DNA from: Reyranella sp.
GTDB taxonomy: Bacteria; Pseudomonadota; Alphaproteobacteria; Reyranellales; Reyranellaceae
NCBI GenBank assembly: GCA_016780605.1
Contig: JADHLS010000088.1
Span: forward strand, 1-11,082
Direction of reading: 5' to 3'
Length of the DNA: 11,082 nt
Below are positions 284-10,948 of this stretch, in pieces (within the stretch, counting starts at the first letter, position 1; every line of letters begins with the position of its first letter). The notes under the pieces are model-generated. The model was not told where the DNA came from. It saw nothing but the letters and a program-made list of their open reading frames with translations, and made no database searches. The translations under genes were made by a program, and so were the position numbers.

Positions 284-1258
284 ATGAACCGTCGTTCCCT
301 CCTCCAGTCCATCGGCGGTCTTGCCCTCACCGCGCCCTCGATCGTTCGGGCCCAGGCGGTCCGTCGCATCGGCTATCTCAGCCTGGGCTCGGCCGCAGCG
401 GAGGCGACGCGGTTCGATGCCTTCCGGTCTGGCCTTGCCGCGCTGGGCTATGTCGACGGCAAGAACCTCGCCATCGAAACGCGCTGGCTCGATGGCGCGC
501 CCTACGATCGCCTGGCCGAGCTTGCCCAGCAGCTGGTCGCGCTCAAGGTCGAGGTCATCGTCACCTATGCCACGCCGGGCGTGACGGCGGCGAAGAAGGC
601 GACCAGCACGATCCCGATCGTCTTCGCCACGGTGGGCGATGCCGTCGCGGTCGGCCTGGTGGCGAGCCTCGCCCGACCCGGTGGCAACGTCACCGGCACC
701 TCCTATTTCCTGCCCCAGCTTGCGGCCAAGCGGCTCGAGCTTCTCAAGGAGGCGATACCGGCGCTCGCGCAGTCGGGCGTGCTGTTCAATCCGGCGAACC
801 GCTCGGCTGTGCAGGTGCTGGCTGCGGTTCGCGAGACCGCACAGTCGCTCAAGGTGGACGTCTCGGACTTTCCCGTGCGTGATGCTGCTGAGCTAGAGCA
901 AGGCATTGCGGCCATGACCGCCAAGGCCGTGACAGCCCTCGTGGTGCCGGAGGATCCAATGCTGATCTACGCATCGCCCACCATCGCCAAGCTCGCGCTC
1001 GCGCATCGGTTGGCGTCCTGCGGCGTCGCCGAGCTGGCACAGGCCGGTGGGCTGATGGCCTACGGCATCGACTTCGTCGCGACCTGGAGGCATGCCGCCA
1101 CGTACGTCGACAAGATCCTGAAAGGCGCCAATCCCGGCGACATTCCGGTCGAGCAGGCAACGCAGTTCCGGCTGGAGCTCAACCAGCAGGCCGCGCGGGC
1201 ATTGGGTGTTTCCTTTCCGGCGACGCTGGTCGCTCGTGCCGACAATGTCGTGGACTAA
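284..1258 (+). CDS. ABC transporter substrate-binding protein (ABC_sub_bind family)
   Basis: The 324-residue product starts MNRRSLLQSIGG, a twin-arginine-like or Sec signal peptide ending near residue 25 (VRAQA), followed by RRIGYLS, the first strand of a periplasmic binding fold. Family landmarks are visible: GLAALGYVDGKN (about 50-61), AAKKATSTIPIVF (102-114), GLVASLARPGGNVTGT (124-139), and a C-terminal stretch of the type VEQATQFRLELNQQAARALG ending in ARADNVVD. Length is normal for PF04392/COG2984. The protein should bind a small solute in the periplasm and hand it to a permease, but no permease or ATPase gene is in the window, and the ligand cannot be read from sequence. The ATG at 284 sits right before the signal peptide; no strong Shine-Dalgarno is visible. 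The MFS gene follows after about 58 bp on the same strand and may be cotranscribed. Confidence 0.93.
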   Translation: MNRRSLLQSIGGLALTAPSIVRAQAVRRIGYLSLGSAAAEATRFDAFRSGLAALGYVDGKNLAIETRWLDGAPYDRLAELAQQLVALKVEVIVTYATPGVTAAKKATSTIPIVFATVGDAVAVGLVASLARPGGNVTGTSYFLPQLAAKRLELLKEAIPALAQSGVLFNPANRSAVQVLAAVRETAQSLKVDVSDFPVRDAAELEQGIAAMTAKAVTALVVPEDPMLIYASPTIAKLALAHRLASCGVAELAQAGGLMAYGIDFVATWRHAATYVDKILKGANPGDIPVEQATQFRLELNQQAARALGVSFPATLVARADNVVD

Positions 1259-2986: not shown

Positions 2987-3997
2987 GTGGGGGAAGGAAG
3001 CCCAATTAAGAGGCGCGAGTTAATCATACGAGCAGGCGGCGCGGCGCTCGGTAGCTCGGCGGTGGCACAGCCGTTTGGGGTGACTGCCCAGCCCGGCGGG
3101 AAGATCCGGCGAATCGGCCAGGTATTTGCCGGAGCGCCTTCCTCCCCGGCCCCCGCCGCGGTCGAACACCGATTGCGAGACTTAGGTTACGTCGACGGCC
3201 GGAACATCGAGCTGCGGACTCGATATACAAAGCCGGAGCCGGGTCAAATGCGGGAAGTAATCTTGGAATTGCTGGGCGGCATCGACCTGCTCGTCGTCTG
3301 GGGGACGATCGGCGCCGTCGCGGCAAAATCGGCGATGGCAAAAATCCCGATCGTCTTCCTGTCAGTCGGAGCTCCGGTTGAGATTGGCCTTGTCGAGACG
3401 CTAGCGCGTCCCGGTGGCAACATGACCGGGATCACTTTTGAAGCCGCATCGGAAACCTATGCTAAGCGGCTACAGATGCTGAAAGACCTCGTGCGGAACC
3501 TTTCCTGCGTCGCGGTGCTCGGAGCAAAAGATGACCCGAACGTCCGCTTTGCCAAGGCATCGCTCGATTCGTCAGCGCCGAAGCTCGGTATTGCGGTGGT
3601 GTCGAGTGAGGTCGCCTCACCCGACGAATTCGGCAGAGCCTTCGAGGACATGCGGCGGCTCCAGTCGCAAGCGCTGATTGTCGTCGCCGGAGCGTTCACG
3701 CTCTTCCATCGCAAGGCAATTGTCGACTTGGCATTGTCCAATGGCTTGCCGTCCTGCCATGGGTTCGCCGAAGCTGTCGCAGCCGGTGGCCTGATCAGCC
3801 TTGGGCCGGATATGATCGAACTGGCCTATCAGGGCGCGCGCTTGGCGGCCAAAGTCATCGACGGCGCTCATCCTGCGGACCTGCCAGTAGAGCAACCGAC
3901 CCGCTATACCGTCAGCGTCAACCTCGAGACCGCCAAGGCGCTCGGCCTCGCCATCCCACCGACGATCCTCGCCCGCGCTGACGAGGTGATCGAATAG
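2987..3997 (+). CDS. ABC transporter substrate-binding protein (ABC_sub_bind family) in a repeat-flanked cassette
   Basis: A 336-residue product from GTG 2987; an in-frame TGA at 2978-2980 excludes any start further upstream. It shows the family pattern: KRRELIIRAGG, a signal region, KIRRIGQVF, HRLRDLGYVDGRN, AMAKIPIVFLSVGAPVEIG, ETLARPGGNMTGITF, and the C-terminal VEQPTRYTVSVNLETAKALG...ARADEVIE. The start is odd. Paralogs begin M-[KRN]-R-R, but here the matching position is ATT (3005-3007) before AAG AGG CGC. A good Shine-Dalgarno-like AAGGAAG (about 2994-3000) sits just before that ATT, whereas GTG 2987 has none. Codon use looks more relaxed (TTA, ATA, AAA, ATT appear) than in neighbours, which with the flanking inverted repeat hints at separate ancestry. 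It converges on the gene at 4111. Ligand unknown; periplasmic location expected. Confidence 0.88.
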   Translation: MGEGSPIKRRELIIRAGGAALGSSAVAQPFGVTAQPGGKIRRIGQVFAGAPSSPAPAAVEHRLRDLGYVDGRNIELRTRYTKPEPGQMREVILELLGGIDLLVVWGTIGAVAAKSAMAKIPIVFLSVGAPVEIGLVETLARPGGNMTGITFEAASETYAKRLQMLKDLVRNLSCVAVLGAKDDPNVRFAKASLDSSAPKLGIAVVSSEVASPDEFGRAFEDMRRLQSQALIVVAGAFTLFHRKAIVDLALSNGLPSCHGFAEAVAAGGLISLGPDMIELAYQGARLAAKVIDGAHPADLPVEQPTRYTVSVNLETAKALGLAIPPTILARADEVIE

Positions 3998-4093: not shown

Positions 4094-4112
4094 TTTATAG
4101 GTTTTGACCCTT
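4094..4112 (-). repeat. Right copy of 19-bp inverted repeat flanking the gene at 2987
   Basis: Read on the minus strand, this is AAGGGTCAAAACCTATAAA, identical to the copy at 2822-2840 except for one base. It overlaps the TAA stop (4113-4111) of the minus-strand binding-protein gene, so that gene's stop lies inside the repeat. The two copies point toward each other around the gene at 2987-3997. Confidence 0.7.
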
Positions 4113-5046
4113 AGTCGATCACCTCGTCGGCGCTGGCCACGAACAGCGGCGGTAGCGTCAGGCCCAGCGCCGCCGCGGTCTTGCGGTTGATCACCAGCTC
4201 GAACTTGGTGGCCTGCTGCACCGGCAAGTCGGACGGCTTGGCGCCCTTCAAGATGCGCTCGACCTGGCTTGCGACAGCGCGGTTGATCTCGGCCTGATCG
4301 GCGCCGTAGGAGAAGAGCCCGCCCACTTCGGCGAACTCGCGGCGAAACGAGAAGGCCGGCAGCCGTGCCTCTAAGGCTCTCGCCGCCATTGCCGTCATGC
4401 CGAGGCTTGGCTGGACGAGGACTCCGTCGACACGCCGGCTTGCCAGGGTGGTGAAGGCCTCGACCGGCTGGTCCTCCGGCTTCAGGAACACAGGCACGAG
4501 CTCGATCTTCTCGGCGCGGCTCGTCGCCTCGACGTCGCGCAGCAGCGGCACATGGAAAGGATCCGCCGCATTGAGCAGCAGGCCCACCGTCCTGGTCTGT
4601 GGCCGCATCTCGCGGAACAGCTGCAGGCCCTTGGCCGCCACGGTCGAGCTGGGGCTGAAGGCGCCGGTCAGGTTGCCTTCCGGCCGAGCCATGTTGGTCA
4701 CCAGACCGGTGACGGGCGCGCCGCCGTTGAACACGATCGGGATCGTCGAGGTCGTCTTTACCGCCGCAGCGGTCGCCGGTGACAGCACGGCAACGATCAC
4801 GCTGACCTTCAGGGCCACCAGCTCCCTGGCTGCCGCCTCGAGGCGCTCGGTGCTGTCGCCGGCGCGGAATTCGTAGGCGACGCTCTTGCCCTCGATCAGG
4901 CCAAGGCCGGCCATGGCCTTGCGGAACAGTCTCCAGGTCGGCTCCGGATCGCCCGCCACCAGGAAGCCGACGCGCGGCGGTGGCGCCTGTGCCCTGGCAG
5001 GCGCTGCGGTCAGGGATGCCGCGGCCAGGAAGAGGCGTCGCCTCAC
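4111..5046 (-). CDS. ABC transporter substrate-binding protein, third gene of a coupled operon (GTG start)
   Basis: The 311-residue product starts at GTG 5046-5044 and reads RRRLFLAAASL with a signal peptide ending APARAQA. The mature domain PRVGFLVAGD follows, then TTSTIPIVFNGGAPVTG, NMARPEGNLTGAF, and the C-terminal VQQATKFELVINRKTAAALG...ASADEVID, all typical of PF04392. Its GTG start overlaps the TGA stop of the preceding gene (sequence GTGA), so translation is probably coupled to that gene. This overlap decides the start. The protein should be an exported periplasmic solute-binding protein; substrate unknown. It is the last gene of the three-gene operon, and its stop codon lies within the inverted repeat shared with 2822-2840. 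Confidence 0.92.
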   Translation of the reverse strand: MRRRLFLAAASLTAAPARAQAPPPRVGFLVAGDPEPTWRLFRKAMAGLGLIEGKSVAYEFRAGDSTERLEAAARELVALKVSVIVAVLSPATAAAVKTTSTIPIVFNGGAPVTGLVTNMARPEGNLTGAFSPSSTVAAKGLQLFREMRPQTRTVGLLLNAADPFHVPLLRDVEATSRAEKIELVPVFLKPEDQPVEAFTTLASRRVDGVLVQPSLGMTAMAARALEARLPAFSFRREFAEVGGLFSYGADQAEINRAVASQVERILKGAKPSDLPVQQATKFELVINRKTAAALGLTLPPLFVASADEVID

Positions 5047-6002
5047 TCGATCACCTCGTCCGCGCGCGTGAGGATGAGGGGCGGCAGGTCGAGCCCCAGC
5101 GCGCGCGCCGTCTTGAGGTTTATGACCAGCTCGTAGGTCGCCGGCCGCAGCACCGGCAGGTCCGCGGGTTTCGCACCCTTCAGGATGCGGCCCGCGTAGG
5201 TGCCCAGCAGCCGGTACATATCGGCCCAGCGCGTGCCATAGCTGGCGAGCCCGCCGTCGGTCGCGAACTCGCGCGCCGGAAATATGCCGGGCAGGCGTCG
5301 CTCTTGGGCAAGCCTCAGGATGCGGCTACGAATGTTGATCAGGAAGGCGTCCGCGCCGACCGCAAGCGCATCGACCGTGGGCAGCGACTTGAACGCTTGC
5401 TCGACCTCGGAACTGCTGGCGGCGGCGAGCAGGACGAGATCGAGACCGAGCGTGCCGGCCACGTCCTTGGTGCGCGGCAGCAGCTCGGCGTAGCCCGGGT
5501 TCTCGGGGTTCATCAGCACCGCAACCTTGCGGGCCTTGGGCAGCATGTCGTGCAGCAAGTCGAGCCGCTTGGCATCGAGCTCGTTGGCCCACAGGGTCAT
5601 GCCCGTCAGGTTGCCTTCCGGCCGATTGAGGTTCTTGACCAGGCCGATGGCAACGGGGTCGGCGCCGGCGCCGAACACCACGGGGATGGTCGACGTCGCC
5701 GCCTTGAACGCGACGGCGACGGGATTGCCGCCGACGGCGACGATCAGGTCGGGTCTGGTCGCCACGACCTCGGGCGCAAGCTTCGCCAAGTCGGCATAAC
5801 GACCGTCGGCCCACTGCACCTCCAGCGTGACGTTCTGGCCCTCGACATAGCCGGTCGACTTCAAGCCATCGCGAAAGGCCTCCAGCAGATGAGCATCCGT
5901 GGCTTGCGAGCGACCGCTGAAATAGGCGATGCGCGGAACGGCTTGCGCCCGGACGACTGTCGGCAGGCAGGATGCCGCGGCGAGGAACGAGCGACGTCTC
6001 AT
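5043..6002 (-). CDS. ABC transporter substrate-binding protein, second gene of a coupled operon
   Basis: A 319-residue product from ATG 6002-6000. The open frame extends further upstream to 6173, but that extension is arginine-rich frame-shadow of the preceding gene. At 6002 a proper signal peptide begins (MRRRSFLAAAS ... VVRAQA), followed by VPRIAYFSG, the first strand of the mature fold. Further landmarks are TGYVEGQN, ATSTIPVVFGAGADPVAIG, NLNRPEGNLTGMT, and a C-terminal LVINLKTARALGLDLPPLI...TRADEVIE. The start overlaps the upstream stop as ATGA, and its own stop overlaps the next gene's GTG, so all three genes are tightly coupled. Length is normal for the family. Periplasmic solute binding is expected; no ligand can be assigned. 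Confidence 0.92.
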   Translation of the reverse strand: MRRRSFLAAASCLPTVVRAQAVPRIAYFSGRSQATDAHLLEAFRDGLKSTGYVEGQNVTLEVQWADGRYADLAKLAPEVVATRPDLIVAVGGNPVAVAFKAATSTIPVVFGAGADPVAIGLVKNLNRPEGNLTGMTLWANELDAKRLDLLHDMLPKARKVAVLMNPENPGYAELLPRTKDVAGTLGLDLVLLAAASSSEVEQAFKSLPTVDALAVGADAFLINIRSRILRLAQERRLPGIFPAREFATDGGLASYGTRWADMYRLLGTYAGRILKGAKPADLPVLRPATYELVINLKTARALGLDLPPLILTRADEVIE

Positions 6003-6760
6003 TCGATGGTCTCGTCGACAATGGCGCGCAGCGATGCGCCGATCTCGAGCCCGATGGCTTTGGCCGTCCTGAGATTGAGGGCGAGAACGAGCTTCGACGC
6101 CTGCTCGACTGGCAGGTCGGCGGGCTTTGCCCCCTTGAGGATGCGGCCGACATTGAAGCCGGCGCGCTGCCACAGGGCTTCGGCGTCCGGCCCATAGCTC
6201 ATCAGGCCGCCCTCGTTCACCGGCGCGATATTGTCGAACATGGTCGGCACGGCACGGCCGTTGGCAAGGGCAATGATACTGGCGCGGCGGGCGAAGTACG
6301 TGGCATCCGTGCCGACCAGCAGCGCGCTGTCGGGTTTCAGGGCCGCGAAGGCGGCGTCGATCTCCGCATCGCTGACGGCTTTCAAGATCTGCGCTTGGAC
6401 GCCCAAGGCCCGCGCCGCGATTTCGTGGGCGGCAATGACCGCCGCGGCGCTGGGGTGGTCGGAATGGATCAGCAGAGCGAGAGTGGTGGCCTTGGGTGCC
6501 GCCTGCCGCAGCAGCTCCAGCCGCTTCGGCACCAGCTCGACCGCCAGGGTGACAATGCCGGTGGCATTGCCGCCGGGCCGGCCGAGGCTTTTGACCAACC
6601 CCAGATCGACCGGCGGATCGGCGATCACGAAATAGATCGGAATGCTGTCGGTCGCTTTCTTGGCGGCAACGGCGGCGGGCAGGGCCTGCTGCGCCTGCGC
6701 GGCGGCCGGGGCGGTCACAGCAATGCTGCCAGCGAGTGCCGCGAACTCGCGCCGCTTCAT
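5999..6760 (-). CDS. ABC_sub_bind protein with in-frame loss of part of the N-terminal lobe
   Basis: A 253-residue product from ATG 6760-6758, with GGGG 8 nt upstream as a plausible ribosome binding site. It starts MKRREFAALAGS with signal peptide ending AQAQQ. After only about seven residues it reads VAAKKATDSIPIYF, which in full-length paralogs falls near residue 100. The family segment from R-I-G-Y-L through the T-P-G loop (about 70 residues, including the G-Y-V-x-G-x-N motif) is absent, while the frame is intact. Downstream family blocks are normal: SLGRPGGNATGI, VPKRLELLRQAAP, VEQASKLVLALNLRTAKAIG, and a divergent end AIVDETIE. Without the first strands of lobe 1 it may not bind ligand in the usual way. 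It is the first gene of the three-gene operon and ends with ATGA overlap. It diverges from the desaturase gene at 6873. Confidence 0.85.
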   Translation of the reverse strand: MKRREFAALAGSIAVTAPAAAQAQQALPAAVAAKKATDSIPIYFVIADPPVDLGLVKSLGRPGGNATGIVTLAVELVPKRLELLRQAAPKATTLALLIHSDHPSAAAVIAAHEIAARALGVQAQILKAVSDAEIDAAFAALKPDSALLVGTDATYFARRASIIALANGRAVPTMFDNIAPVNEGGLMSYGPDAEALWQRAGFNVGRILKGAKPADLPVEQASKLVLALNLRTAKAIGLEIGASLRAIVDETIE

Positions 6761-6872: not shown

Positions 6873-7799
6873 ATGAGCGCCTTTGTCGTGACGGGCCAGC
6901 GCGCCCGCCAGATGCGGGTCGTGCCCGCCGAGGTGCTGAAGCGCCTCTACAAGCGATCCGACGGGCATGGGCTGGTGCAGACGGCCGGCCATCTCGCACT
7001 GCTCGTGGCGGGCGGCTGGCTGGTGCTTGCGACCAAGGGCACCTGGTGGGTCGTGCCGGCGCTCCTGATCCAGGGCATCTTCGTCAATGCGCTGTTCGGC
7101 GCGATGCACGAATCGGTGCACTACGGCTCGTTCAAGACGCGCTGGATGGCCGACCTGCTCGCCTTCTTCTCGGGAGCGGCGATCCTGAACAATGCCGGCT
7201 TCTACCGGCATTATCACATGGCCCATCATCGCTATACGCAGGATCCTGCGCGCGATCCCGAGCTCGTCACCTCGGGCACGCCGCGCACCTGGGGCCAGTA
7301 TCTCTTCCGCATCAGCTCGATCCCGTTCCTGATGCTCAGGATTCGCGACATCTTCCTGTTCCCGTTCGGCTTCAAGGGCAATGTCGACTACATCCATCCC
7401 TCGGCGTGGCCCGAGGTGCGGCGCTGGGGCCGCTGGCTGCTGGCGTTTTATGCGGCGCTGGTCGGCGGATCGATCGCGCTGCAGACGACCGTCGTGTTGT
7501 GGGTCTGGTTCATTCCGCTGCTGGTCGGCCTGCCGTTCCTGCGGCTCTATCTGGTCTGCGAGCACACGCTCTGCCCCAACTCCGACGACGGCTTCGCCAA
7601 CACCCGCACGACGCTCTCCAATCCCATCGTGCGCTTCCTGATGTGGAACCTGCCCTATCACGCCGAGCATCACCTGTTCCCCAACATCGCCTTCCACAAC
7701 CTGCCCGAGGCGCATCGCTATCTGCGCCCGCACCTGAAGTATGTCGCCAGGGGGTATATCCAGGTGCAAGGCGAGATCATGCGCTCATTGTCATCCTGA
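6873..7799 (+). CDS. Membrane fatty acid desaturase family protein
   Basis: The 308-residue product carries the three histidine boxes of membrane di-iron desaturases and hydroxylases. They are HESVH at 79-83, H113-Y-H115-M-A-H-H119 (HxxHH at 115-119), and HAEHH at 263-267. Extra conserved histidines are at 231 and 275. Hydrophobic segments lie at about 38-75, 92-108, 148-165 and 186-225, matching the Desaturase_FA topology with iron ligands on the cytoplasmic face. The reaction is O2-dependent and needs an electron donor; the substrate (acyl lipid, carotenoid or other) cannot be decided. The ATG has GAGG 4 nt upstream. The stop codon TGA (7797-7799) lies inside the hairpin repeat that begins at 7789, so the last three codons come from the repeat. 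It is first in a four-gene plus-strand run. Confidence 0.9.
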   Translation: MSAFVVTGQRARQMRVVPAEVLKRLYKRSDGHGLVQTAGHLALLVAGGWLVLATKGTWWVVPALLIQGIFVNALFGAMHESVHYGSFKTRWMADLLAFFSGAAILNNAGFYRHYHMAHHRYTQDPARDPELVTSGTPRTWGQYLFRISSIPFLMLRIRDIFLFPFGFKGNVDYIHPSAWPEVRRWGRWLLAFYAALVGGSIALQTTVVLWVWFIPLLVGLPFLRLYLVCEHTLCPNSDDGFANTRTTLSNPIVRFLMWNLPYHAEHHLFPNIAFHNLPEAHRYLRPHLKYVARGYIQVQGEIMRSLSS

Positions 7800-7880
7800 G
7801 CGCAGCGAAGGATCTCGTGGTGCTGACGCCGGAGCACGGCATTGACGGCGATGAGATGCTTCGCTGCGCTCAGCATGACA
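7789..7880 (+). repeat. Hairpin repeat, copy 1 (between desaturase and hydrolase genes)
   Basis: Two 28-nt arms, 7789-7816 and 7853-7880, are reverse complements with two mismatches (arm positions 7 and 23), separated by 36 nt. The left arm begins TGTCATCCTGAGCGCAGCG and contains the desaturase stop codon. The right arm ends 12 nt before the hydrolase ATG. A second copy with the same layout and the same two mismatches is at 8869-8959. Elements with a TGTCATCCTGAGCG core are, to my knowledge, dispersed intergenic repeats in several proteobacteria. Confidence 0.9.
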
Positions 7881-7892
7881 TAGGGGCGTGGC

Positions 7893-8879
7893 ATGAGGAC
7901 AAGTGAAGGCACATTCGAGTGCGGCGACCTCTCGCTGCAGCGTGGCGGCACGCTCAAGGGCGCGCGCATCGTCTACAAGACCTACGGCACGCTCTCGCCG
8001 GCGCGCGACAACGTCATCGTCTATCCGACCAGCTACTCGGCGCAGCACAGCGATATCGAATGGCTGGTCTCGGTCGAGCACTGCCTCGATCCCAGCCGCT
8101 ATTTCATCGTCATTCCCAACATGTTCACCAATGGGCTGAGCTCCTCGCCGTCGAACACACCCCAGGGAGCGGCGGGCGAGTTCCCCGAGGTCACGACCTA
8201 CGACAACGTCATGCAGCAACGCCGCCTGCTGGCTGAGCTGTTCGGCGTCGATCGCGTGAAGATGGTCTATGGCTGGTCGATGGGCGCTCAGCAGGCCTAC
8301 CAGTGGGGAGCGCTGTTCGGCGAGGCGGTCGAGCGCATCGTGGTCAACTGCGGCTCGGCCAGGACTGCACCGCACAACTTCGTGTTCCTCGAAGGCGTGC
8401 GCACCGCCGTCCAGAACGCAAGGATACCGCAGGACGGCCTGCGCGCCATGGGCCGCATCTACGCCGGCTGGGCGTTGAGCCAGACCTTCTATCGGCGCGA
8501 GATGTGGCGCGGGCTGGGCTTCACCAGCCTGGAGGATTTCCTGGTGCGCTCGTGGGAGGCCAACTTCCTGCGCCGCGATGCCAGTGACCTGATGGCCCAG
8601 CTGTGGACCTGGCAGAACGGCGACATCTCGGCCAACGACCTCTATCGCGGCGACCTGCACATGGCGCTGGCCGGCATCAAGGCCAAGGTCCTGCTGATGC
8701 CGTCGGCCACCGACCTCTACTTCCAGACCGACGACAACCGCGAGGAGCTGCCGCATCTCAAGCACGCCCGCCTCGTCGAGATCCCGTCGGTCTGGGGCCA
8801 TCGCGCCGGCAACCCCGCCGTCATCCCCGAGGACGCGGCGTTCATCGATGCCCAGGTGAACGCCCTTCTGTCATCCTGA
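7893..8879 (+). CDS. Alpha/beta-hydrolase, homoserine O-acetyltransferase (MetX)-like family
   Basis: A 328-residue product with the MetX-type layout. The N-terminus (GDLSLQRGGTLKGARIVYKTYGTL) resembles the start of homoserine acetyltransferases. A nucleophile elbow G-W-S-M-G gives Ser129, with Asp274 (SATDLYF) and His303 (WGHRAGNP) as the other triad members. It is shorter than typical MetX (about 370) and has GWSMGAQQA in place of the usual GGSMGG context, so acyl transfer to homoserine should not be assumed. It may be a related acyltransferase or hydrolase. No signal peptide is evident; cytoplasmic location is likely. AGGGG (7882-7886) precedes the ATG. The stop TGA (8877-8879) lies inside the second hairpin repeat, so the C-terminal -LSS is repeat-encoded, just as in the upstream desaturase. 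Confidence 0.88.
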   Translation: MRTSEGTFECGDLSLQRGGTLKGARIVYKTYGTLSPARDNVIVYPTSYSAQHSDIEWLVSVEHCLDPSRYFIVIPNMFTNGLSSSPSNTPQGAAGEFPEVTTYDNVMQQRRLLAELFGVDRVKMVYGWSMGAQQAYQWGALFGEAVERIVVNCGSARTAPHNFVFLEGVRTAVQNARIPQDGLRAMGRIYAGWALSQTFYRREMWRGLGFTSLEDFLVRSWEANFLRRDASDLMAQLWTWQNGDISANDLYRGDLHMALAGIKAKVLLMPSATDLYFQTDDNREELPHLKHARLVEIPSVWGHRAGNPAVIPEDAAFIDAQVNALLSS

Positions 8880-8959
8880 GCGTAGCGAAGGATCTCATGC
8901 CGTTGAAATCGCGACTCGCTTCGACGGCGATGAGATGCTTCGCTACGCTCAGCATGACA
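8869..8959 (+). repeat. Hairpin repeat, copy 2 (between hydrolase and thioredoxin-domain genes)
   Basis: Arms 8869-8896 and 8932-8959 pair with the same two mismatches as copy 1, around a 35-nt spacer. At arm position 15, copy 1 has C and this copy has T; the opposite arm changes from G to A, so pairing is kept. The spacers are mostly unlike each other but share CGACGGCGAT or close to it next to the right arm. The left arm contains the hydrolase stop codon, and the right arm ends exactly where the ribosome binding site of the next gene begins. Confidence 0.9.
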
Positions 8960-8966
8960 GGAGAGG
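8960..8966 (+). promoter_or_regulatory. Ribosome binding site abutting the hairpin repeat
   Basis: GGAGAGG lies 3 nt before ATG 8970 and starts at the base after the repeat's right arm (ends 8959). It fixes the start of the thioredoxin-domain gene. Folding of the repeat in mRNA would place a long stem directly next to it. Confidence 0.7.
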
Positions 8967-8969
8967 CCC

Positions 8970-10424
8970 ATGCCCGACACCCTCCTCCCGCGCGACGGCC
9001 TGGTCATTGTCGCCAAGCGTGATTGCCCGACCTGCGTGCTGGTCGAGCCGGTGATGCAGAGCCTCGACCGCGCCGGCGCGCTGGCCGTGGTCAGCCAGGA
9101 CGATCCGACCTTCCCATCCGGCGTGCGGTCCGTGATCTATGACGACGCGCTGGAACGCTCCTTCCGCCTCAACATCGAGGCGGTTCCGACCCTGATTCGC
9201 TTCAAGGACGGCCGCGAGGTCGAGCGCACCGTGGGCTGGCAGCGCCAGGAATGGATACGCCTCGCCGGCGCCGCCGCCGAGGGCAAGGGCCTGCCCGACT
9301 GGCAGCCGGGCTGCGGCTCCAAGAGCGTCGAGCCTGGCGTGCATGAGGCGCTGATCGCGCGTTACGGCGATCCTGGGCTGAAGTCGCGGGAAATCTCCGT
9401 CGGCAACTGGGACGATCCGATGGAGGCCTGCTTCGAGCGCGGCTGGACCGACGGATTGCCGGTCGTGCCGCCGACCGACGAGCGCATCCTGCGCATGCTG
9501 GGCGGCACCGAGCGCAAGCCCGACGAGGTGGTTGGGCTGATCCCGCCCAACCTCGCGCCCTGCACCGTCGAGAAGGTTGCGATCAACGCCGTGATGGCGG
9601 GCTGCAAGCCCGAATACATGCCGGTGGTGCTGGGCGTGCTCGAGGCAGCGCTCGATCCGCTGTTCGTGATGCATGGGCTGCTGTGCACCACGCATTTCTC
9701 CGGGCCGCTGGTGATCATCAACGGGCCTGCGGCCCGGGCGATCGGCATGAACAGCGGCGTCAATGCGCTGGGCCAGGGCAACCGCGCCAACGCCACCATC
9801 GGCCGCTGCCTGCAGCTGATCGTGAGAAACGTCGGCGGCGGCCTGCCCGGCGCCATCGACCGCGCGACCTTGGGGAATCCCGGCAAGTACACTTTCTGCT
9901 TCGCCGAGGACGAATCCGATCCCGACTGGGAGCCGTTGTCGGTCCGCCGCGGCATCGAGCCGGGCAAGAGCGCCGTCACCCTGTTCCACGGCGAAGGCGT
10001 GCATGGCTTCATCGACCAGAAATCGCGCGCGCCCGAGGAGCTGGTGCGCTCGCTGGCCATGGGCCTGTTCGGCGTCGGCCATCCCAAGCTCTGCGACGCC
10101 GGCAACGCCGTGCTGGTGCTGACGCCCGAGCACTACAAGATCTTCAAGGACGGCGGCTGGAACCGCCGGCGCATCGAGGACGAGCTGTTCCAGGCGCTGA
10201 AGCGGCCCGGCCGCGACCTGGTGTGGGGCGCGCAGGGCGTGGCCGAGGGCCTGCCGCCCAAGTACGCCGACCAGATGGTCGACAAGTTCCAGCCCATGCC
10301 AGATGGCGTGCTGATCGTTCGCGCCGGCGGCGAGGCTGGGCTATTCTCGGCCATCATTGGCGGCTGGCCGGGTCAGCGCGTTCGGGAAGAGTGCCAGGCC
10401 GTTACCAGGGAGATTCGCCCATGA
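8970..10424 (+). CDS. Thioredoxin-like domain fused to a large uncharacterised DGLPVVPPT domain
   Basis: A 484-residue protein. Residues 1-105 look like a thioredoxin fold: strand LVIVAKRD, redox pair C19-P-T-C22, and the cis-proline loop EAVPTLIRFKDG (Pro73). A linker with WQPGCGSKS (about 111-119) leads to a second domain from about 145 to 484. That domain carries GWTDGLPVVPPTDERI (158-173), TVEKVAINAVMAGCKPEYMPVV (199-220), INGPAARAIGMNSGVNALGQGNRANATIGR (250-279), GNPGKYTFCFAED and LGPEH-like LTPEHYKIF (384-392). I recognise this second domain only as a conserved family without known chemistry. It has many cysteines (154, 198, 212, 239, 280, 310, 375, 475). No signal peptide is seen. The ATGA overlap with the selenoprotein gene (start at 10421) argues for coupled translation and a shared redox role, the thioredoxin domain being a plausible reductant. 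Confidence 0.85.
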   Translation: MPDTLLPRDGLVIVAKRDCPTCVLVEPVMQSLDRAGALAVVSQDDPTFPSGVRSVIYDDALERSFRLNIEAVPTLIRFKDGREVERTVGWQRQEWIRLAGAAAEGKGLPDWQPGCGSKSVEPGVHEALIARYGDPGLKSREISVGNWDDPMEACFERGWTDGLPVVPPTDERILRMLGGTERKPDEVVGLIPPNLAPCTVEKVAINAVMAGCKPEYMPVVLGVLEAALDPLFVMHGLLCTTHFSGPLVIINGPAARAIGMNSGVNALGQGNRANATIGRCLQLIVRNVGGGLPGAIDRATLGNPGKYTFCFAEDESDPDWEPLSVRRGIEPGKSAVTLFHGEGVHGFIDQKSRAPEELVRSLAMGLFGVGHPKLCDAGNAVLVLTPEHYKIFKDGGWNRRRIEDELFQALKRPGRDLVWGAQGVAEGLPPKYADQMVDKFQPMPDGVLIVRAGGEAGLFSAIIGGWPGQRVREECQAVTREIRP

Positions 10425-10948
10425 ATTCAGAGATGAAGCTGCGCGATCCCACCGCGGAAAGCTCGCCGGTCCGCCGGCCGCGGCTTGCTCCGCCATCGTC
10501 GCTCGACGGCAAGACCGTGGCGCTGATGGATATCGGCAAGTCGCGCGGGGCGGAGTTCATCGACCGCCTCGAGGGCCACTTCAGGAAAGCCGGTGTCGCG
10601 ACCAGGCGCTACGCCAAGCCGACCAACACCAAGGTGGCGCCGACCGCGCTGATGCAGCAGATCGCGGCGGAGGCGCAGCTCGCGGTGATCGCCTTAAGCG
10701 ATTGAGGCTCCTGCACATCGTGCAGTCTGCACGACCTTCATAATCTCGACAGCCGCGGCCTCCCGGGCGTGAACATCGTCACCACGGGCTTCGTCGACGG
10801 CGTCGAGGCGCAAAGCGATTCCCTGGGCTTCGATCCCGGCGTGGTCTACGTGCCCCATCCGATCCAGAACCGCACCAAGGCCGAGATCGAGGCGATCGCC
10901 GACCAGGCTTTCGACAAGGTGATGGCCCTGCTGCGGGCGCCGGGTTAA
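10421..10948 (+). CDS. UGSC-family selenoprotein (in-frame TGA at 10703-10705 read as selenocysteine)
   Basis: From ATG 10421 the frame reads 94 residues to VIALSD, meets TGA at 10703-10705, then continues without a break for 80 codons to TAA 10946-10948. The whole is 175 residues with Sec95. The motif is U95-G-S-C98 followed by T-S-C101, matching the UGSC selenoprotein family known from microbial selenoproteome surveys. Flanking text fits the family: SLDGKTVALMDIGKSRG (27-43), RYAKPTNTK (63-71), and after Sec SLHDLHNLDSRGLPGVNIVTTGF and YVPHPIQNRTKAEIE. The downstream half is clearly protein-like, so a true stop is unlikely. A SECIS-like hairpin follows the TGA. Sec95 and Cys98 could form a selenenylsulfide. 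The start overlaps the upstream stop (ATGA). Function is unknown; a selenol redox role is inferred. The Sec machinery (selA, selB, selC, selD) must be elsewhere in the genome. Confidence 0.92.
10703..10740 (+). promoter_or_regulatory. Putative bacterial SECIS element
   Basis: TGA at 10703-10705 is followed, with 12 nt between, by a perfect 7-bp stem (10718-10724 with 10728-10734) capped by the 3-nt loop G-U-C (10725-10727). The loop begins 20 nt after the TGA, and its first base is G, both within known bacterial SECIS rules. The apical sequence GCAGUCUGCAC closely resembles GCAGGUCUGCAC of E. coli fdhF, whose loop G and U contact SelB. A weak lower pairing of UGAGG (10702-10706) with CCUUCA (10735-10740) is possible. 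Position and sequence support selenocysteine decoding. Confidence 0.8.

What the first reader, a model, noticed from the sequence alone, without database searches (positions are those of the whole stretch)
10421..10948. UGSC selenoprotein hidden behind an in-frame TGA
The frame continues for 80 codons past TGA 10703-10705 to a TAA, and both halves carry UGSC-family sequence. The residue at the TGA sits at the U of the UGSC motif, with Cys98 and Cys101 downstream. Standard gene calling would give a 94-residue fragment and leave 10706-10948 as non-coding. A selenoprotein outside the usual formate dehydrogenase set is uncommon for an aerobic-looking alphaproteobacterium.
Basis: partly seen in the sequence, partly recalled or inferred. 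Interest (0 to 1): 0.9.

Follow-up and report, generated by a model that had tools for sequence, protein, structure and literature searches.

The report
UGSC selenoprotein gene in Reyranella
A bacterial gene that ordinary gene calling would cut in half at a stop codon almost certainly reads that codon as the rare amino acid selenocysteine; it is a new member of a known but uncharacterised selenoprotein family, found next to a thioredoxin-bearing partner gene.

Summary
Window 10421-10948 is one frame interrupted by a single TGA (10703-10705). Both halves match Pfam PF24696 (UGSC), and the TGA is the U of UGSC. The host is a Reyranella MAG, 61% complete.

All 37 genus members searched carry 2-5 UGSC matches (137 of 139 matches have exactly one TGA). 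Homologues from Burkholderiales and Saprospiraceae have Cys codons there. Selection is equally purifying on both sides of the TGA. A 7-bp hairpin with a G-U loop follows, conserved with compensatory changes, its loop at the same distance from UGA as in the MAG's formate dehydrogenase Sec site.

The MAG has selD but not selA, selB or selC. In 48 of 54 genomes with all three they share a contig, and a MAG contig ends about 230 bp before the selA frame would open, so an assembly gap is likely, not proven.

The family is known, so this is a new member. Added here: a linked, sometimes fused partner with a thioredoxin domain in this subtype; a flavodoxin-like model; a weak PrdB resemblance; and PrdB-like genes with an in-frame TGA in the same genus. 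The reaction is inferred.

The parts
10421..10948 (+). UGSC family selenoprotein gene, 175 residues, TGA read as selenocysteine
10703..10705 (+). in-frame TGA, proposed selenocysteine codon (residue 95)
   Evidence: 89 of 94 aligned loci have TGA here, 3 TGC, 2 TGT; counted as distinct sequences 74, 3 and 2 of 79
10718..10734 (+). SECIS-like hairpin, 7-bp stem 10718-10724/10728-10734, loop GTC 10725-10727
8970..10424 (+). partner protein, 484 aa: N-terminal thioredoxin domain (CPTC) plus a conserved core without a Pfam family; its stop overlaps the UGSC start codon (ATGA)
9378..10421 (+). partner core (about residues 137-484), with a match in 99 of 100 UGSC loci in hand and fused to UGSC in some
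7893..8879 (+). alpha/beta hydrolase gene, upstream neighbour in 45 of 50 close orthologous loci, not in the more distant ones
6873..7799 (+). fatty acid desaturase gene, upstream neighbour in 43 of 50 close orthologous loci, not in the more distant ones

Best explanation
The gene encodes a UGSC-family selenoprotein. A ribosome reaching UGA 10703-10705 meets the hairpin just downstream (bSECIS), SelB delivers Sec-tRNA, and translation runs on to residue 175. The protein folds as a five-stranded flavodoxin/Rossmann-like domain with the selenol at the start of a helix (U95-x-x-C98-x-x-C101). It works as the catalytic redox subunit of a two-protein enzyme with the adjacent, overlapping partner gene's product, whose thioredoxin domain probably supplies the electrons. 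Shown by computation: the read-through frame, conservation of the TGA, the hairpin, linkage to the partner, Sec machinery in the genus. Inferred: actual Sec insertion here, the complex with the partner, electron flow from the thioredoxin domain, and the reaction (probably a reductive bond cleavage or dithiol-dependent reduction as in GrdB/PrdB; substrate unknown).
For: Both halves match one family. Codon 95 is TGA in 89 of 94 loci aligned and Cys (TGC/TGT) in 5; six more loci missed by that tblastn also have one TGA, in G-C-U-G-S-C. dN/dS of the window against 38 distinct orthologues is 0.22 before and 0.19 after the TGA. Codons 99-105 use one codon each in 39 distinct orthologues, against 11 of 97 outside columns with at least 95% conserved, degenerate residues. 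Hairpin: 7 of 7 pairs in 43 of 48 distinct TGA sequences, six in 4, five in 1; compensatory changes G-C/A-U and C-G/G-C, covariation score reached by 0 of 500 shuffles. The bases CAGTCT, which hold the loop, lie at the same distance from UGA in the MAG's formate dehydrogenase, which also folds a hairpin there. Sec machinery: selA 56, selB 58, selC 57 of 61 genomes; selD in the MAG. The partner core has a match in 99 of 100 UGSC loci and is fused to UGSC in L069-L071 and L073-L075. Models: pLDDT 92.3 and 90.0.
Against: selA, selB and selC were not found in this MAG, and the right border of the supposed gap is not syntenic: contig C52 starts with 219 bp that do not match the relative where selC would precede. 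Folded from the TGA on, the hairpin region is not unusually stable (z -0.94, 35 of 200 shuffles fold as well) and a rival fold has the lowest energy; without the TGA the hairpin is the lowest-energy fold. Rfam has no match. Two of five covariation measures are reached by 62 of 500 shuffles. The fused UGSC genes do not have this hairpin but another one. Of five Cys loci L110 keeps 6 of 7 pairs, the others 5, 4, 4 and 2, none with GU in the loop's first two bases. The NCBIfam UGSC cut-off is missed by 4.7 bits. No experiment.
Confidence: 0.95

Rival explanations
1. The TGA is a true stop: a 94-residue protein is made and the downstream half is a decaying remnant or a separate piece.
For: Standard gene calling ends at the TGA; selA/B/C were not seen in this MAG.
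Against: Purifying selection is as strong after the TGA as before; the TGA is kept over the genus and its paralogues while full-length Cys homologues exist; no other stop in the frame.
Confidence: 0.02
2. Sequencing or assembly error that made a TGA from a Cys codon.
For: The window is from a MAG (515 contigs, 60.7% complete).
Against: The same TGA is in independent assemblies, among them Reyranella soli NBRC 108950 and Reyranella aquatilis KCTC 52223 (L086, L100).
Confidence: 0.005
3. UGA read as another amino acid (Trp, or Cys by a tRNA variant) or by plain stop-codon read-through, not as Sec.
For: In this MAG alone three Sec genes are missing.
Against: Residue 95 is Cys in all 45 non-TGA homologues aligned; ARAGORN finds tRNA-Sec with anticodon TCA in the two relatives scanned at that locus; loop bases and spacing match the formate dehydrogenase Sec site; TGA ends other genes, e.g. 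the partner at 10422-10424.
Confidence: 0.02
4. Same selenoprotein, but the enzyme is a general thiol-disulfide oxidoreductase rather than a GrdB/PrdB-like reductase.
For: UxxC motif; thioredoxin domain in the partner; [quoted passage not shown] one of the paralogue loci looked at sits among housekeeping genes (L076).
Against: The confident model is a (beta-alpha)5 flavodoxin-like fold. The UGSC profile scores 18.5-19.5 against the partner's thioredoxin domain and 30.5-30.9 against PrdB-like proteins, whose column shuffles reach at most 20.3; the thioredoxin profile was not itself shuffled.
Confidence: 0.4

Closest known systems
UGSC-containing selenoprotein family (Pfam PF24696; NCBIfam NF041046; Zhang and Gladyshev 2008, PMC2398784)
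   Same: Sequence family, UxxC motif, Sec at the same place, higher share in non-marine samples reported in 2008; a UGSC fusion with a domain named Unknown_1 was reported then (passages).
   Different: Here a genus-wide set of 2-5 UGSC matches per genome in Reyranella, beside a partner whose subtype in this window carries a thioredoxin domain. Whether the partner core is Unknown_1 could not be checked (the figure is not held).
Glycine/sarcosine/betaine reductase selenoprotein B and D-proline reductase PrdB (PF07355, TIGR01918, TIGR04483)
   Same: UxxCxxC motif as stated for GrdB in PMC13188914 (passage); weak profile similarity over the active site and a later HP/FP-x-x-N motif; weak GrdF match of the window protein, E 9.7e-4.
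   Different: No confident homology (hhalign probability 20-24%); UGSC is only 175 residues and has its own partner; no GrdA or pyruvoyl subunit was looked for.
Formate dehydrogenase-N alpha subunit (TIGR01553) of the same genome
   Same: In-frame UGA followed by a hairpin whose loop bases and distance from UGA agree.
   Different: Unrelated protein; stem sequence differs.

Membership tests
UGSC family | match to Pfam PF24696 above the curated cut-off over its length | tested here: met
   115.4 bits against 25, positions 2-171 of 172
UGSC family | NCBIfam NF041046 equivalog cut-off (125 bits) | tested here: not met
   120.3 bits over the whole profile, 4.7 short, with Cys put in for U; so the NCBI equivalog name is not claimed, the Pfam family is
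UGSC family | U/C-G-S-C motif | tested here: met
   U95 G S C98, invariant in the 57 rows of A1, which leaves out the fused forms; L069 has C-S-T-C
bacterial selenoprotein genes | in-frame UGA aligned with Cys in homologues | tested here: met
bacterial selenoprotein genes | bSECIS: stem-loop with G in the first two loop positions, apical loop 16-37 nt after UGA (as quoted from PMC13188914) | tested here: met
   loop G is base 20 after the TGA
bacterial selenoprotein genes | selA, selB, selC, selD in the genome | tested here: inconclusive
   selD in this MAG; selA/B/C not found at 61% completeness; in the genus selA 56, selB 58, selC 57 of 61
bacterial selenoprotein genes | selenium in the protein | not testable with these tools
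   needs mass spectrometry or 75Se
GrdB/PrdB (PF07355) | match to PF07355 | tested here: not met
   not among the 12 families matched by any of the 57 members at E up to 1
GrdB/PrdB (PF07355) | UxxCxxC active-site motif | tested here: met
   U95-G-S-C98-T-S-C101; C101 is Trp in L081, L082, L084 and Ala in the fused forms L070-L075
thioredoxin fold (for UGSC) | thioredoxin-like structure | tested here: inconclusive
   model is a five-stranded alternating beta/alpha fold; top structural matches are mixed Rossmann-type chains at tied scores

The most novel reading that the evidence does not exclude
Reyranella is a selenium-rich genus that runs a set of selenium-dependent reductases: UGSC plus partner core is a minimal GrdB/PrdB-like selenol subunit paired with, or fused to, a dedicated substrate subunit and, in the window's subtype, its own thioredoxin, alongside separate PrdB-like selenoproteins. 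Several paralogues per genome would each act on a different scavenged compound.
Probability: 0.3. Interest if true: 0.65.

Novelty: new member of a known kind. Interest (0 to 1): 0.38.

Why it matters
Default annotation cuts the gene in half. The family has no known function in the papers seen, although it was among the major selenoproteins of the 2008 ocean survey. Named, cultured Reyranella strains with several copies, a linked partner and natural fusions make the function testable. If the PrdB-like genes with in-frame TGA are real too, this genus is an unusually selenoprotein-rich alphaproteobacterium.

Tried and rejected
Rfam scan of the window: no match at gathering threshold. Sequence search of solved structures with the UGSC profile: one chance hit, E 0.21. 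Foldseek and VIA-align for UGSC: many common Rossmann-like folds at tied scores, no family singled out. Foldseek for the partner: its thioredoxin domain is clear; the fumarase matches ranked first (E 4.6e-4) have TM about 0.2 and were discarded. First hhalign controls were run in a wrong mode and showed nothing; rerun in local mode. PF07355 in 398 genomes of the phylum: 8 with a match, 6 over the cut-off; seven loci made the PrdB-like set A3, the eighth (L121, own genome) was left out then because its frame stops early; that stop turned out to be a TGA. Neighbours of other paralogues are mixed: ABC and TRAP permeases, a CoA-transferase and a LysR regulator, but also seryl-tRNA synthetase, SurE and PCMT (L076) and gamma-glutamyltranspeptidase (L077), so they do not settle a role. 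Papers: UGSC plus selenoprotein 8, 'UGSC family' 0, UGSC plus Reyranella 0, Reyranella plus selenoprotein 3, Reyranella plus selenocysteine 1; the Reyranella ones, by listing and abstract start, concern crayfish, fish or pollution. Seen as passages only: PMC2398784, PMC13188914, PMC8124441, PMC9312934, PMC5029168.

Full report
What is there. Window 10421-10948 encodes 175 residues if the TGA at 10703-10705 is read through. The start codon overlaps the stop of the 484-aa gene at 8970-10424 (ATGA). Each half alone matches the UGSC family and together the halves leave out only the U position of the profile. Read through, the protein scores 115.4 bits against the Pfam cut-off of 25, and 120.3 against 125 for the stricter NCBIfam model.

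Organism. The nearest named relatives are Reyranella (L086 R. soli, L100 R. aquatilis, several Reyranella MAGs). The window's assembly has 515 contigs and is 60.7% complete.

The TGA is a sense codon. Of 61 genomes searched 38 have UGSC matches: all 37 of the genus and 1 of 24 others. By my hand tally of that table there are 139 matches: 137 with one TGA, one with three TGA, one without a stop. That the TGA is at the motif was checked only in loci in hand. Of 100 UGSC loci in hand (some the same region from two collections), tblastn with the window protein aligned 94 at residue 95: 89 TGA, 3 TGC, 2 TGT, or 74, 3 and 2 of 79 distinct sequences. The six it missed each have one TGA in G-C-U-G-S-C. 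The Cys forms are from Burkholderiales and Saprospiraceae MAGs (L110-L113) and a fused form (L069). In alignment A1, 45 true Cys proteins and 12 TGA genes share an invariant column there. dN/dS against 38 distinct orthologues is 0.22 before and 0.19 after the TGA.

The hairpin. Twelve bases separate the TGA from TCGTGCA-GTC-TGCACGA. In 39 distinct orthologues codons 99-105 are each a single codon, against 11 of 97 outside columns with conserved, degenerate residues. Over 48 distinct TGA sequences the stem is complete in 43, has six pairs in 4 and five in 1. Two pairs show compensatory exchange; the covariation score is 0.127 against 0.052 in shuffles, 0 of 500 as high, but the numbers of pairs with a double change and of pair types are reached by 62 of 500. 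The five Cys loci keep 6, 5, 4, 4 and 2 of the 7 pairs and none has GU at the loop start. From the TGA on, the window's region is not exceptionally stable and another fold is lowest; without the TGA the hairpin is the lowest fold. The fused UGSC genes L070-L075 lack this hairpin and fold a different one with a longer loop. The MAG's formate dehydrogenase (TIGR01553) has CAGTCT at exactly the same offset from its UGA and folds a hairpin around it.

The Sec machinery. Own MAG: selD yes; selA, selB, selC no. Of 61 genomes strong matches to selA are in 56, selB in 58, selC in 57, all three in 54; in 48 of these 54 all three are on one contig. The weak matches that the selB, selD and tRNA-Sec searches also give in control genomes were left out. 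In a relative (L123, from G012) the order is formate dehydrogenase, selA, selB, selC. In the MAG, contig C410 ends inside that dehydrogenase gene; C367 picks up about 60 bp later, carries its TGA, and ends at the place 468 bp before the SelA domain match and about 230 bp before the selA frame opens. Contig C52 resumes about 50 bp after selC, but its first 219 bp do not match, so on that side the order is not conserved. The absence is therefore probably, not certainly, a gap.

The partner. The 484-aa protein has an N-terminal thioredoxin domain and a core without a Pfam family. A homologue of the core is found in 99 of 100 UGSC loci in hand; the exception, L059, is cut 319 bp upstream. It lies upstream in most and downstream in some (L081-L084). 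In L070, L071, L073, L074 and L075 a TGA-containing UGSC domain and the core form one chain of about 568 residues (L072 is interrupted by N), and in L069 a Cys form does, 555 aa. Among 50 close orthologous loci (duplicates included) the alpha/beta hydrolase precedes in 45 and the desaturase in 43, several of the rest being short of DNA; in the six more distant loci they are absent. A UGSC fusion to a domain called Unknown_1 was reported in 2008, so fusion as such is not new.

Fold and mechanism. The UGSC model is confident (pLDDT 92.3), with five alternating strands and helices and residue 95 between strand 87-93 and helix 96-111. That differs from the thioredoxin fold the 2008 paper thought likely. 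The profile aligns weakly to PrdB-like proteins (scores 30.9 and 30.5 with two UGSC alignments; best of 100 column shuffles 20.3 and 20.0; probability 20-24%), placing residue 95 on the first Cys of CPxC. A review states that GrdB has UxxCxxC, as here. From this I infer a GrdB/PrdB-like selenol subunit fed by the partner's thioredoxin. Reaction and substrate are unknown, and neighbouring genes of other paralogues do not settle them.

More Sec genes. L121, a PrdB-like gene of the same MAG (TIGR04483, 111 bits against a cut-off of 300 when read through), has a TGA exactly at the first Cys of CPxC, followed by a hairpin with GU in its loop. The MAG thus has at least five candidate Sec genes: three UGSC, this one and formate dehydrogenase.

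Novelty. The family is known (2008 survey; a 2016 table gives it 26 and 33, headings not seen; Pfam and NCBIfam entries). The gene is a new member. The searches showed no paper on selenoproteins of Reyranella in the library held.

Noticed in passing
L121 1450-2280 (own genome, contig C490), TGA at 1942-1944: A PrdB-like gene with an in-frame TGA at the first Cys of the CPxC motif and a hairpin after it; relatives in 60 of 61 genus genomes, most listed rows with one TGA. A probable further selenoprotein family member of this genus.
   Followed up: partly
window 284-1258, 2987-3997, 4111-5046, 5043-6173, 5999-6760: A run of ABC-type substrate-binding protein genes; two were confirmed as PF04392, the others were judged from their translations; parts of the last three share a 149-nt direct repeat.
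   Followed up: partly
window 7789-7880 and 8865-8963: Two copies of a palindromic repeat (arms 28-34 nt, 91-93% complementary) flank the alpha/beta hydrolase gene, the second lying just before the partner gene.
   Followed up: no
L069 3722-5389: A Cys-form UGSC domain (C-S-T-C) fused to the partner core in one 555-aa frame.
   Followed up: partly
L070-L075: TGA-containing UGSC-partner fusions with a different hairpin after the TGA (six-base loop) from that of the stand-alone genes.
   Followed up: partly
G033:C7:1671-2132: A UGSC match with three in-frame TGA codons, unlike all others listed.
   Followed up: no
L114-L120: PrdB-like Cys proteins of about 320 aa with an invariant C-P-x-C-H-Q motif in other Proteobacteria.
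   Followed up: partly
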